Source of the DNA: Botrytis cinerea B05.10
Lineage: Eukaryota > Ascomycota > Leotiomycetes > Helotiales > Sclerotiniaceae
Assembly (NCBI RefSeq): GCF_000143535.2
Contig: NC_037312.1
Coordinates: 2,170,001 to 2,234,000 of the forward strand
DNA length: 64,000 nt
Reading direction: 5' to 3'
Position 1 is the stretch's first letter. Every line of letters begins with the position of its first letter. The position numbers and the translations under genes were made by a program. This document shows, in pieces, positions 8,686 to 30,042 of the stretch. Below the pieces are notes generated by a model, which was not told where the DNA came from, did no database searches, and saw only the letters and a list, made by a program, of their open reading frames with translations.

Positions 8686-9902
8686 TCAAATCAGGCCCGT
8701 AGAAAGTGTTTGCATTCGTATCGCATGAGATTTGGATTTATTCCATCTACTATCCACCGGAGCAAAAATATTAGAGAAATTAGCACAGGCTACCGAAGTA
8801 GATGCTGTTTTGCTTAGTATGATTCCTAGCGATAGCTGTACTCTTATGCGATACTAACATGGAAAGCACGCCTGTTGCGCAGTTTAGCTGCTTTTGGTGC
8901 GATTACAGAGAATGGATAATCCTACACACTGTCATCTTCCTGTGCATTATTCGCAGACTCGGACTTCACAAAAGAAAGCGTGACTTGGTGATTCTGAGCA
9001 CTCCTCCCCTCTGCTGAACGGGAAAGCTAATTCGAGCTTTCGCATAGTGCGGATTTTCTGGGCCTGGCATACTGGGCATTACCGAGATTTCTCGCGGATA
9101 CAAAGTATATGAATCCGAGGGATCCGAAAAATACTGCGGTCCAGACTGCTTTTCAGTGTCGAGATAAAGATTTGTTTGGGATTCTTGGAGAGAAACCTGA
9201 GACGGCGCAGGCGTTCGCATCGCTGATGAGGAAATTGGCGGAGGAAACCTCGTTAGTGCAGGATCTTTTCCCCGTGGGACAGTTTTTGGCTGGGGGATAG
9301 TTCTTCCTCGGCTCTGTGGGTGGATGTGGGAGGCGGGTATGGTCAGAAGACTGTCGCGTTTAGATCTGCGTTTCCGACGTTGGGGGGGTCGGTTTGTGGT
9401 GCAGGATTCGGACCACATCATCCGCGGCGCGGATAGGAAAGAGGGAACCGAGTATATGGTTCATGATATTTTCACTGAACAGCCTGTTATTGGTAGGTAA
9501 ATCTTTCAATTTCAGCTCCACATCGTGTATAGGAATCGCGTTGCACATCCACATCTACATCTGCTAAACTTCCTGTGAAATAGGAGCTCGAGCTTATTGT
9601 ATCCGTCAGGCCCTCCGTGATTTTCCTGATGATGAATGTGTAGTTATTCTTACGCGGTTACGCAAAGCGATGAAGCAGGGTTACTCCAAACTCTTTATAC
9701 ACGAACAGATTGTACCGAAATCGGGAGCGCCGGTGTGCACAGTGACGCAGGATTTTAATATGATGACGCTTTTGGGAGCGGCGGAGAGGACGCTAGATTG
9801 TTTTTCGCATGTGCTTTCGAGGTCGGGGTTGAAGATTTTGGGGTTTTATTCGGCGCTGGATGGGGTTTCGGAGGGGCTTGTGGAGGTGGAGGTTAGGGTG
9901 TG
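8686..9902 (+). pseudogene. SAM-dependent O-methyltransferase pseudogene (secondary-metabolite type)
   Basis: Family hallmarks appear in the right order but in different frames. They are DLDLFHLLSTGAKIL at about 8730, LLRSLAAFGAITENG at about 8875, FTKESVTW at about 8962, RDPKNTAVQTAFQCR at about 9115, the SAM-binding VDVGGGYG at about 9322, FVVQDSDHI near 9390, FTEQPVIG near 9470, and the catalytic-region block GARAYCIRQALRDFPDDE with MKQGYSKLFIHE after an intron at about 9492-9583. The 3' exon is open to the stop at 9900-9902. There are in-frame stops near 8712 and 8915. Frameshifts fall at G runs near 9294 (GGGGG) and 9381 (GGGGGGG). Such enzymes methylate phenolic or enolic hydroxyls in polyketide pathways. 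I infer an inactive gene; the two frameshifts at G runs could in principle be sequencing errors, but the upstream stops argue for real decay. Confidence 0.85.
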
Positions 9903-11436
9903 AGGTTGGGGTTTGTTTTGGATTAGATAAGATTGAGGTTTATGATGAATTGGTTGCTGTGATCTCTACTAGGTAGGTACTAGTAGGTTCGTTGATGGTG
10001 GCTGGTGGCGAAGTCATCTGTTCAAGTTCAGAATGCAAGTTAATCGAAACTCACTTCCATTGAAGAACATCAATTTCGGTGTTAATCCATTTCAAATCGA
10101 TGTAATTACTTCAAGGTTAATCTATATTTATACGGCACATTACTCCTCTCTATAAAATCTATCTTCCTTGGGAACCTGTTCTTCCTATAGATCCTACCTT
10201 TTCTACAGAATCTACTCTCCTTATAGAATGTATTTTCCACTTATAAAATTTGTTCTTGTATCCACTAATTGTGATGCTACTATATAATTTAAGGGGCATG
10301 AGAGTAAATCGTCTTTCAATTCTAGGGCATGATAGTAATCAAATCACTTTTGGAAGGTATAAGAGTAATTTGGCCATATTTATATCTATACCAGCAATCA
10401 ACTCCGAAGCTAGATGCGCATGGCTTTCTTGGCAATAAAGCTGTATATTTCCTAGCTGCATGAGTATTACTAACTCGATATCACAGATGTGTGAAACCAG
10501 ATCTGGTATTGGCGGGGCTATATGGTAGTAAATTGCCACTTTAGGGGATTCGGGACATCTGTCAAAAGCGAAGAATCACGGAAGTTAAGCAACGCATATT
10601 AGATAAATTAGTTTCATATAGAACTCGGCAGTCGTCCTCCGCTTCCATCTTTGTCTTCTTTCACAGCTAAAAGTATACGAAGAAGGATTCGATAGCCACC
10701 AATAAAACTCTCTCACGAAAGCAAGAAAAAGAGCTATGCTCGAAAGATGGAATTACATTCTTCGGATGATTGTATGAAAAGCAAACTGGTAAGTATGACT
10801 ACAGCAGAAACGTTGAGATGTGTAAAAGATACTCAACTGTGCCGCTGTGACTACAACCAAGATGCTGAAACAATGGAGCTCTTTTAATCTAGTGCTTATT
10901 TCCAACACAGATGTGCCCCGCATTTCACATGAGTGAGTAGCTGGAATTGGAGAACGCTATTTGAAGTTGCAAGTGGTGGCTTGTTGGTGATTGTAGTGCA
11001 GACTGCAATTGGTTCTCAATGTTTCTTCAGTGCCATATTAGCACGGTAAATACCAACATCTCGATGTATCCCTGATTATCATTAGATCCACGCTGCATCT
11101 TTTTCTAGCGAAAATATCGCGCCGTGAGCCTAAGAGACTTCCTGTCTGAAAACAATCTTTGAAATCTTTCTTCTCATAGATCATGAAATTACAGTTACAA
11201 GCTGGAATTCTCACATTGAGTCCAGATATAGCCGTGAACGCAGAAATGTAATCGATATAGACCAAGAAGTCAAGACTTACTGATGTCGTCAGCTACTTCT
11301 ACCGGTATTTCCAAGATTTATCTTGGTTGTGGGTAGTTCGTTTGAGGAACTAGCCTGACAACGTGTCATGGAAAAGCATTGATTTTCTGAATTCAACTCG
11401 TAATGACGTGTTGCACGATTTTCGTGTTAATAACTA
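9903..11436. other. intergenic, no recognisable gene
   Basis: About 1.5 kb of AT-rich sequence with only short ORFs on both strands. Nothing matching a known family was seen. Confidence 0.6.
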
Positions 11437-28042: not shown

Positions 28043-28826
28043 TTGGAGCCCTTGGAATGATTCAGTTCTGTGGCCTTTCACCCCTTGGCAAGTGAATGTA
28101 CGATATATTGGTTGAATGTTGTTGTCGCATACAGTATGTGCAATTAATTTGGTAGATGTGGTTGTACAGCAACGCTTCTTCCTTTCATGAGTCTCGTATT
28201 GGTCATACTTTCCGACCCCTCCCTTATCAGTCTGGCGATGACACTTTTGACCCCACTAGGAGGCTAAGACCTAGTGAAATCAGGGGAAACCTTGCCCAGA
28301 CTGGAATCCCGAGCCGACCCGTGAGTCTGGGACCGAAAGTAGATGAATTGTAGTCGAGGGAGGCACGCGAGGCTTACTTTGATACCATCAGACCCTTGTA
28401 TGAACTCCAAGTCACTTTAATACGATGTGGTGAAACACGAAGATTGTGTAGAAGAAAAGGGCGTCTTCCGAGAAATTCATAATCATGTCGATCATTACTC
28501 TGTACAATTCCTAGTAACGTGGGAGCAAAATAGGCGACGGTGATTAATAGTTGAGAAATTCCAATTAGCCATGCCAGCGATGGTTTTTTACCCTCATCGT
28601 TTCTGATATCTGACATACACCAAGTCGGAGAATCAATATTTGGAATATATATGAACAATGAAAGAAAATCCAATCTAGAAAAGATAAACGACAAAGCATG
28701 TATCACCTGTTTGTGACATGAATGGCATTCTTTGTTGGACCAAATGAGAGGTATAGCAACGTGAAGTACATGGACTCGGTTGTGGTTCCTGTCCTTGCAA
28801 GCCACATGGATGCCACTCAATATAAT
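28043..28826. other. intergenic, possible short ORF on minus strand
   Basis: A minus-strand frame from 28820 to 28374 codes for a short peptide with one or two hydrophobic stretches (LAWLIGISQLLITVAYFAP). I do not recognise it and see no supporting splice structure. It may be chance or a gene remnant. Confidence 0.3.
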
Positions 28827-30042
28827 TTAATAACCTTGTACAGCCTTAGGTGCGTAGCCTTCCTCAAGATATGCAATGTCCTCTGCAGTTAATCTCCCAG
28901 AGCTGGCGAATTTGACCGCTTCTACTGCTTGCTCAATTCTCTCTTTGCTACTCAAGCCAACGATTGGATTAACACTGTCCTTGTTAAGACACCAAGCAAT
29001 AGCTACAGTTGCCATGCTAACTCCATTTTTCTTTGCGATTTCCTCAACACGATTGATGACGGTTTTATCGATTTCATTCTCCTTGCTACGAATTAAAGCC
29101 TTGAGCATCATATCACTATTTTCACGCTTTGTGCCTCGCTCATTGAAAGGGCGAGCAAGTGCTCCGCGGGCAATTGGGCTCCACGGAATGAGTCCAACAC
29201 CAGAGTCTCTACAGTATGGAATCATCTCTCGTTCTAATTGCAGATGGTATAAGTGTCTTGAAAGCGTATAGGGATGAGAAACATACCTTCTTCACGGTAA
29301 AGCAAGTTGTAATAATTCTGCATGGAGACAAATTTGTGCCAGCCTTTCTTCTCTGCGATATTTTGTAGCGTTTGGAATTCCCATGCAGCCATCTGCCATA
29401 TGTAAGTCTCTACTGTTAATCTTGGGATGCATCATTCAACTTACACTGCTTGCACCAATATATCGAACTTTGCCACTTTCCACAACATCATTCAAGGCTC
29501 TCATGATTTCTTCTCTGGGAGTATCGCGATCGAGTCTGTGGATCTGCAGGACATCGATATATGTTCCCAATCGAGCAACGCTCTTGTCCACAGCATCAAG
29601 AATATGCTTTCTGCTCAAGCCAACCCGGTTGACCATCTCTCCATCATTTGTGCTAAGCTTCGAAATGAGTGGTTGTGTTCCATCTTCAGCAACACCGAAA
29701 TAGCATTTGCTAAGAATAACAACCTCGTTTCTTGGAATTGAGTATTGCTTTAAAGCTTTCCCGATGATTTCCTCGGATTTTCCGTTGGAGTAAGTGTCTG
29801 CAGTGTCCCATGTATTCAATCCGAGATCGTATGCGTGTTTCAATAGTGGAAGAGCTTCGTCCTCGTTAATTACCTTGTCATGTTAGCAATGTGCCTGGTA
29901 ACAAATCAAATCGAGGAATAGCTACCCAGTCTTGCCATTCGGATGATCCAAAAGACATTGCACCAAAGATAACCTTGGAAATCTTTAATCCCGAGTTACC
30001 GAGTCTTGTGTATTCCATCTTAAGTTCTTTGGGGGCCGACAT
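28827..30042 (-). CDS. aldo/keto reductase
   Basis: Minus-strand exons 29926-30042, 29445-29873, 29287-29392 and 28827-29233 give 1059 nt, 352 residues, with all four exons in phase. Start at 30042 (MSAPKELKMEYTRLG); a second Met lies eight residues further. Seen: VIFGAMSFG, the active-site WDTADTYSNGKSEE with catalytic Asp and Tyr, VILSKC with the Lys, LQIHRLD with the His, and the C-terminal NADPH-binding GLSSKERIEQA. The AKR tetrad Asp-Tyr-Lys-His is complete. Family knowledge: NADPH-dependent reduction of aldehydes or ketones, with relatives in fungal polyketide pathways (versiconal hemiacetal acetate reductase-like). Intact; may be the right border of the island or a general reductase. 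Confidence 0.93.

What the first reader, a model, noticed from the sequence alone, without database searches (positions are those of the whole stretch)
8686..30042. A decayed hybrid polyketide-diterpenoid gene island with a surviving tailoring set
Within 21 kb are two reducing-PKS remnants, a bifunctional-type diterpene cyclase, an O-methyltransferase and a P450 remnant, all broken. Next to them are apparently intact thioesterase-like, two P450 and one aldo/keto reductase genes. Co-location of polyketide and class II/class I diterpene core enzymes is typical of meroterpenoid or compound clusters. Here all scaffold-forming enzymes are dead while tailoring genes remain open, which suggests recent or ongoing cluster loss, or reuse of the tailoring enzymes.
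Basis: partly seen in the sequence, partly recalled or inferred. Interest (0 to 1): 0.8.

Follow-up and report, generated by a model that had tools for sequence, protein, structure and literature searches.

The report
Dead diterpene-polyketide gene island in Botrytis
This stretch of grey-mould chromosome 3 holds broken remains of several natural-product genes, including a diterpene cyclase that had vanished from the gene catalogue, scattered among ordinary living genes that probably never belonged to one shared pathway.

Summary
The window is chromosome 3 of Botrytis cinerea B05.10 (2.170-2.234 Mb). The island holds an O-methyltransferase scrap, a P450 scrap, a strongly eroded reducing-PKS remnant, the open last 541 residues of a second reducing PKS, and a near full-length but dead bifunctional diterpene cyclase. 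New here: (1) the cyclase is almost certainly Bcdtc2 (BC1G_06148), which two papers say has dropped out of the B05.10 annotation; it is still there as a pseudogene. (2) The PKS tail is almost certainly Bcin03g06470, listed in 2024 as a newly found PKS gene; it lacks about 1,990 N-terminal residues that a Botrytis aclada relative keeps. (3) A 438-bp inverted-repeat (MITE-like) element lies at the truncation scar. The interpretation as one hybrid cluster with a surviving tailoring set is not supported. The P450 at 26.1-27.9 kb has relatives across Leotiomycetes, including Blumeria, which has no diterpene cyclase. The thioesterase-like gene has Sclerotinia homologues. Intact PKS and cyclase relatives came from different Botrytis species, and the dead parts decayed to very different degrees. 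Ordinary in kind: mosaic decay of patchily distributed secondary-metabolite genes.

The parts
9201..9903 (+). O-methyltransferase remnant (C-terminal SAM domain only)
   Evidence: Methyltransf_2 on 9568-9900; upstream part 9201-9500 by eye from the ORF list. No close paralogue in the genome: best 40%.
11437..12072 (-). P450-C remnant, C-terminal half only
   Evidence: p450 profile 279-444; best own-genome relatives 43-45%.
12847..14827 (+). PKS remnant 1: eroded highly reducing PKS, KS, AT-DH and KR scraps with internal deletions
   Evidence: tblastn of the B. aclada PKS: residues 54-237, 760-1079 and 2283-2324 at 34-52% identity; Pfam KS, AT, KR; best other locus in the genome 34%.
15780..16945 (-). 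thioesterase-like (4HBT_2) gene, intact-looking; most likely BC1G_06146
   Evidence: PF13279; BC1G_06146 named 'Thioesterase-like domain protein' beside SS1G_05461 and SS1G_13907.
17391..17828 (.). 438-bp AT-rich inverted-repeat (MITE-like) element at the PKS truncation scar
   Evidence: 80 matches in the genome, the window copy and both strands included, with recurrent ends; internal inverted arms; ends TAT...ATA and 6-bp duplications in some copies.
18003..19749 (+). PKS remnant 2: C-terminal 541 residues (ER-KR-ACP) of a highly reducing PKS, N-terminal ~1,987 residues missing; most likely Bcin03g06470
   Evidence: 89% and 93% identity to B. aclada EAE96_008299 residues 1988-2528; among the KR hits on C3 only this and pks3 at 1.456 Mb score as PKS-type, three others being weak at 42-54 bits; Bcin03g06470 carries KR and phosphopantetheine domains.
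19877..22834 (-). dead bifunctional (CPS/KS-type) diterpene cyclase; most likely Bcdtc2 = BC1G_06148
   Evidence: tblastn of B. elliptica 953-aa cyclase, 62-82% identity in four pieces and three frames; stops in the pieces; one of three such loci found in the genome; gene-number neighbour of BC1G_06146.
23750..25600 (+). P450-A, apparently intact with several introns
   Evidence: p450 profile 238-436; exon reading by eye, so not firm.
26069..27865 (-). P450-B, intact three-exon P450 with wide relatives (not cluster-specific)
   Evidence: Residues 1-542 of B. porri P0193 covered at 84-95%; distribution.
28827..30120 (-). aldo/keto reductase, apparently intact
   Evidence: PF00248, 196 bits; distribution not tested.

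Best explanation
This is a mosaic graveyard of secondary-metabolite genes on chromosome 3 of Botrytis cinerea B05.10, set among conserved genes. At least three separate decays are visible. (a) An old one left scraps of an O-methyltransferase, a P450 and a first reducing PKS. (b) The second PKS lost its N-terminal three quarters, probably in one deletion, while its last 541 residues kept an open, spliced frame. This is the B. cinerea counterpart of the B. fabae sclerotial PKS cluster Bfab03g06465-06470, and the annotated Bcin03g06470 is its stump. (c) The bifunctional diterpene cyclase Bcdtc2 died by stop codons, a frame change and loss of its class II motif, but keeps nearly its full length. 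A MITE-like element sits at the scar of (b). The neighbouring thioesterase-like gene and P450-B are conserved residents, not survivors of the cluster. Shown: the remnants, their relatives, the element, the wide distribution of P450-B. Inferred: identity with Bcdtc2 and Bcin03g06470, the B. fabae counterpart, the single deletion, and the order of events.
For: Cyclase: P0004 (B. elliptica) is the top hit at E 0 and maps over the window in four pieces and three frames. The pieces hold 2, 1, 1 and 1 in-frame stops, the two middle ones near the overlapping join. The class II motif is intact in P0004, P0005 and P0007 but not in the window frame. At 73 columns of the class I half that are at least 90% conserved among 57 reference rows (9 short or chimeric rows dropped), the window departs at 11, B. 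elliptica at 3 of 73, Bcdtc3 at 2 of 73, Bcdtc1 at 4 of 71. Identity with Bcdtc2: the genome search with P0004 found three loci, C1, C8 and this one, against Bcdtc1 on chr 1, Bcdtc3 on chr 8 and Bcdtc2 without an Ensembl ID. BC1G_06146 is a thioesterase-like protein, and the window order is thioesterase-like, PKS tail, cyclase. PKS: residues 1988-2528 at 89% and 93% identity with splice-like gaps; B. cinerea 'PKS trunc, 3 del' versus intact in B. fabae. Element. Neighbours.
Against: No DNA of a related Botrytis was available, so synteny was not checked. The B. fabae paper says truncated versions of its PKS are in B. [quoted passage not shown] aclada protein is 89-93% identical to the tail, so B. 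fabae 06470 and this gene might not be the same. The B. fabae table does not name the locus of its 'deleted' cyclase; I place it here from row order only. The conserved-column test is not clean: P0058, a distant named synthase, departs at 10 of 73, and at the 98% threshold the window has 3 of 24 against 2 of 24 for Bcdtc3. The cyclase's extra divergence is modest: B. cinerea-B. elliptica 75.8% against 85.1% for Bcdtc3, but the gene is also faster between B. elliptica and B. tulipae, 89.9% against 95.3%. The window's element has only 4 of 6 matching flank bases, so its role in the deletion is open.
Confidence: 0.8

Rival explanations
1. One reading: one ancestral hybrid polyketide-diterpenoid cluster whose scaffold enzymes died while its tailoring genes (thioesterase, two P450s, reductase) survive or were reused.
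For: Physical closeness within 21 kb. In the B. fabae table the PKS cluster and a diterpene cyclase are consecutive rows, which fits neighbouring loci there too.
Against: P450-B and the thioesterase-like gene have relatives in fungi without such a cyclase. PKS relative in B. aclada, cyclase in B. elliptica and B. tulipae; no B. aclada name among the 68 cyclase rows, six of which carry no species name and each of which shows one member of a 90% cluster. The B. fabae authors list the cyclase as a one-gene entry.
Confidence: 0.1
2. A strain-level chemotype locus: the island is dead in B05.10 but intact alleles still segregate in B. cinerea, for instance in the 'Botryotinia fuckeliana' isolates that make aphidicolane and pimarane diterpenes.
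For: No diterpenes found in B. cinerea broths but about 90 from other B. fuckeliana isolates.
Against: T4 and DW1 are reported with truncated PKS copies too, so that loss is not private to B05.10. The cyclase is only 29.5% identical to the one listed protein named aphidicolan-16beta-ol synthase, and Bcdtc1 and Bcdtc3 are no closer, 25.9% and 30.0%.
Confidence: 0.1
3. Assembly or reading artefact: the cyclase is functional and the stops are errors or unrecognised introns.
For: Two of the gaps between pieces are of intron size, one with splice-site-like ends. An older annotation did call a gene here.
Against: Two stops lie inside the ungapped alignment of B. elliptica residues 19-265 and one in the long C-terminal piece; there is also a frame change without an intron-like gap, a lost motif and extra changes at conserved columns.
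Confidence: 0.03

Closest known systems
B. fabae sclerotial PKS cluster Bfab03g06465-06470 and B. fabae diterpene cyclase (PMC10971195: passages, section 3.8 and the figures-and-tables section seen)
   Same: Same chromosome and gene number as Bcin03g06470; reported truncated in B. cinerea with three genes deleted; a cyclase in the next row listed as deleted in B. cinerea.
   Different: Here a cyclase is not deleted but a near full-length pseudogene, and older PKS, OMT and P450 scraps lie alongside. No B. fabae sequence could be compared.
Bcdtc2 / BC1G_06148 (PMC9920419 and PMC6417074, passages; PMC11173184, passages and section 2.4)
   Same: By elimination and gene-number neighbourhood this is that gene.
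   Different: In what I saw, PMC6417074 and PMC11173184 only say that it is no longer annotated and PMC9920419 lists it without a current ID; none calls it a pseudogene.
DTC3 relic in S. sclerotiorum (PMC3158057, passage) and the non-functional bikaverin genes of B05.10 (PMC11173184, passage)
   Same: Decayed secondary-metabolite genes.
   Different: Different locus and genes; here several decays of unlike depth are interleaved with conserved genes.
Fungal CPS/KS-type diterpene cyclases (PDB 8v0f and 9q3i, named copalyl diphosphate synthase)
   Same: Two stretches match, one in the N-terminal and one in the middle part.
   Different: Dead; best solved relatives are distant, product unknown.

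Membership tests
Bifunctional fungal diterpene cyclase (CPS/KS type) | homology over both class II and class I halves | tested here: met
   B. elliptica residues 19-953 covered in four pieces;
Bifunctional fungal diterpene cyclase (CPS/KS type) | intact class II DxDD motif | tested here: not met
   intact in P0004, P0005, P0007; not in the window frame
Bifunctional fungal diterpene cyclase (CPS/KS type) | open reading frame | tested here: not met
   stops and frame change: a pseudogene of the family
Bcdtc2 (BC1G_06148) | same gene-number neighbourhood and third CPS/KS locus | tested here: met
   coordinates of the old model not available
Highly reducing PKS | KS-AT-DH-ER-KR-ACP | tested here: not met
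   only ER-KR-ACP left in remnant 2 and scraps in remnant 1; the B. aclada relative carries KS, AT, DH, ER, KR and ACP Pfam hits
Hybrid polyketide-diterpenoid (meroterpenoid) cluster | PKS and cyclase co-occur and stay linked in relatives | tested here: inconclusive
   found in different species' proteins, but proteins are clustered at 90% and no genomic context was available; consecutive rows in B. fabae
Hybrid polyketide-diterpenoid (meroterpenoid) cluster | tailoring genes restricted to cluster carriers | tested here: not met
   P450-B and thioesterase-like gene are wider; P450-A and reductase not tested
Decayed secondary-metabolite gene cluster | broken core genes here, intact relatives elsewhere | tested here: met
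MITE | short, non-coding, terminal inverted repeats, many copies, target duplication | tested here: inconclusive
   repeats, ends and copy number met. Exact 6-bp duplication in 3 of the 12 rows examined (11 loci, one counted twice); window copy 4 of 6.

The most novel reading that the evidence does not exclude
The island is a still-segregating chemotype locus: Botrytis cinerea as a species keeps working Bcdtc2 and PKS alleles in some lineages, such as the diterpene-producing Botryotinia fuckeliana isolates, and B05.10 carries a null haplotype made by repeated, independent losses, with parallel decay under way in B. tulipae.
Probability: 0.12. Interest if true: 0.6.

Novelty: new member of a known kind. 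Interest (0 to 1): 0.36.

Why it matters
It answers a loose end in the Botrytis literature: where Bcdtc2 went and why the current annotation lacks it. It also warns that Bcin03g06470, listed as a new PKS gene, is most likely a stump without KS and AT domains, so counts of B. cinerea key enzymes should drop. And it shows that closeness to dead scaffold genes does not make a P450 or thioesterase-like gene a surviving tailoring enzyme.

Tried and rejected
Considered and rejected: recent duplication of a living PKS, P450 or OMT as the source of the scraps, because the best other loci in the genome are only 34%, 43-45% and 40% identical. Repeat-induced point mutation as the killer: the composite RIP index is negative in every kilobase from 8 to 31 kb. 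A telomere-repeat scar: none in the window. Aphidicolan-16beta-ol synthase as the identity of the cyclase: 29.5%. PF19086 listed no CPS/KS locus and so was no help in assigning Bcdtc2. A di-TPS survey (PMC4617483, passages) lists one B05.10 gene with an intact motif, not this one. A first, error-tolerant search for target duplications misplaced the element ends and showed no signal, 1512 of 2000 shuffles reaching the observed mean. With fixed ends the observed 5-, 6-, 7- and 8-base flank matches were reached by 5, 13, 249 and 1245 of 5000 shuffles. A direct count of the terminal arms gave 18 of 60 because it was started one base early; the inverted ends were then read by eye. A literature search for such an element with B. 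cinerea gave 40 papers, 8 listed and none read, so no claim is made on whether it is described.
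Full report
What and where. The window is G000:C3:2170001-2234000 of a genome of 42,630,066 bases in 18 contigs. Contig lengths returned with fetched loci, 8 of 18 contigs, agree with the chromosome sizes of Botrytis cinerea B05.10 in PMC10971195 Table 1, so this is chromosome 3 of that strain. By eye from the ORF lists, the island lies among housekeeping genes: a PIG-V-like gene at 2.9-4.3 kb, an ornithine-cyclodeaminase-like gene at 31.2 kb, carbonic anhydrase at 34.1 kb, ribosomal protein L8 at 37 kb, a CTU1-like gene at 38.4 kb, OMP decarboxylase at 44.8 kb and HSP70 at 59-61 kb (names recalled, not searched).

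The remnants. Pfam scans of stop-free pieces and of single frames with X at each stop found: a Methyltransf_2 C-terminus at 9568-9900; a P450 C-terminal half at 11437-12069; KS, AT and KR scraps at 12.85-14.83 kb; a 4HBT_2 gene at 15.78-16.95 kb; ER, KR and ACP at 17.9-19.75 kb; P450 pieces at 24.9-25.5 kb; an aldo/keto reductase at 28.8-30.1 kb. In the same genome the nearest relatives of the PKS, P450 and OMT scraps are 34%, 43-45% and 40% identical, so these are remains of genes otherwise absent.

The diterpene cyclase. One frame of the reverse strand (P0003) gave 68 relatives; 7988 candidates, those sharing most words, were scored. Best are B. elliptica BELL_0061g00140 (953 aa, 73%) and B. 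tulipae BTUL_0043g00380 (718 aa, 64%), then proteins at about 40%. The B. elliptica protein maps over 22834-19877 in four pieces and three frames. The pieces carry in-frame stops, and the class II motif present in relatives is lost. Among 57 reference rows (9 short or chimeric rows dropped) the window departs at 11 of 73 columns of the class I half conserved at 90%, against 3 of 73 in B. elliptica, 9 of 62 in B. tulipae, 2 of 73 in Bcdtc3, 4 of 71 in Bcdtc1, but 10 of 73 in the distant P0058; at 98% it is 3 of 24 against 0 of 24, 0 of 21, 2 of 24 and 1 of 24, and at 80% 18 of 109 against 6 of 110, 13 of 91, 9 of 110 and 9 of 107, with 29 of 110 for P0058. The test supports relaxed constraint but is not decisive alone. 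The tree groups the window with the B. elliptica and B. tulipae proteins (support 1.0), and with Bcdtc3's group only weakly (0.58). The B. tulipae copy also looks impaired.

It is most likely Bcdtc2. A genome search with the B. elliptica protein gave three loci, on C1, C8 and here. PMC9920419 Table 1 lists Bcdtc1 (Bcin01g04920), Bcdtc3 (Bcin08g03560) and Bcdtc2 (BC1G_06148) without an Ensembl ID (passages). PMC6417074 remarks that the updated annotation no longer contains Bcdtc2 (passages). PMC11173184 excludes it as absent from recent records. PMC4039746 names BC1G_06146 a thioesterase-like domain protein (one passage). The window order is thioesterase-like, PKS tail, cyclase, as the numbers 06146 and 06148 predict.

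The second PKS. The ER-KR stretch matches B. aclada EAE96_008299 (2528 aa; Pfam KS, AT, DH, ER, KR, ACP; a cluster of 11 member sequences) at 89%; the next relatives are 65% (Lachnellula) and 63% (Hymenoscyphus) (best 120 of 1759 listed). Only residues 1988-2528 are present, at 89% and 93%, and both internal gaps have splice-site-like ends. So the tail is truncated, not decayed. On C3 the KR search gave one other PKS-strength hit, at 1.456 Mb, where I expect pks3, and three weak ones at 42-54 bits; only 36 of 113 candidates were scored. Bcin03g06470 is listed in PMC11173184 with KR and phosphopantetheine domains as an undescribed PKS paralogue (passages), and BCIN_03g06490 is a P450 (one passage), as the order here would give. 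PMC10971195 reports in B. fabae an intact five-gene sclerotial cluster with PKS Bfab03g06470, in B. cinerea 'PKS trunc, 3 del', and in the next row a diterpene cyclase marked deleted in B. cinerea; that this row is our cyclase is inferred from row order. [quoted passage not shown] aclada relative was found here.

The scar. Upstream of the tail lies a 438-bp AT-rich element, window 17391-17828, with inverted arms and 80 matches across the genome, the window copy and both strands included, with recurrent ends. Of 20 fetched copies plus the window copy, 11 gave a usable pair of ends (12 rows, one locus counted twice), and 3 have a perfect 6-bp flanking duplication; the window copy has 4 of 6. It may have caused the deletion or landed in it later.

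The living neighbours. P450-B is complete: three exons against B. porri at 93%, 95% and 84%. Its relatives run down to 51% in Blumeria, which has no diterpene cyclase. The thioesterase-like gene has two S. sclerotiorum homologues. I read them as residents, not survivors. P450-A and the aldo/keto reductase look intact, but I had no search left to test their distribution. One of the two P450s, whichever is BCIN_03g06490, is reported up-regulated in infected tomato leaf.

Verdict. The single hybrid cluster is not shown, and its two tailoring genes that could be tested fail the test. The island is a mosaic of losses of different depth, of a known kind.

Noticed in passing
17391-17828 and loci L011-L030: Dispersed AT-rich inverted-repeat element, lengths 182 to 845 bp in the copies with two clear ends, ends TAT...ATA, some with a 6-bp duplication.
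   Followed up: partly
18003-19749: Bcin03g06470, published as a new PKS gene in PMC11173184, appears to be a stump lacking KS and AT.
   Followed up: yes
57001-58000: Extreme strand asymmetry: GC skew 0.885 over 1 kb, by eye a purine/pyrimidine tandem repeat.
   Followed up: no
62001-63000: The only one of 64 kilobases of the window with a positive RIP composite index, 0.75.
   Followed up: no
60144-61313: HSP70 reading frame runs on into a repeated FQLSRSFEILK-like tract; possibly an intron with tandem repeats.
   Followed up: no
P0005: B. tulipae cyclase model is short and departs at 9 of 62 conserved columns, suggesting parallel decay or a poor gene model.
   Followed up: partly
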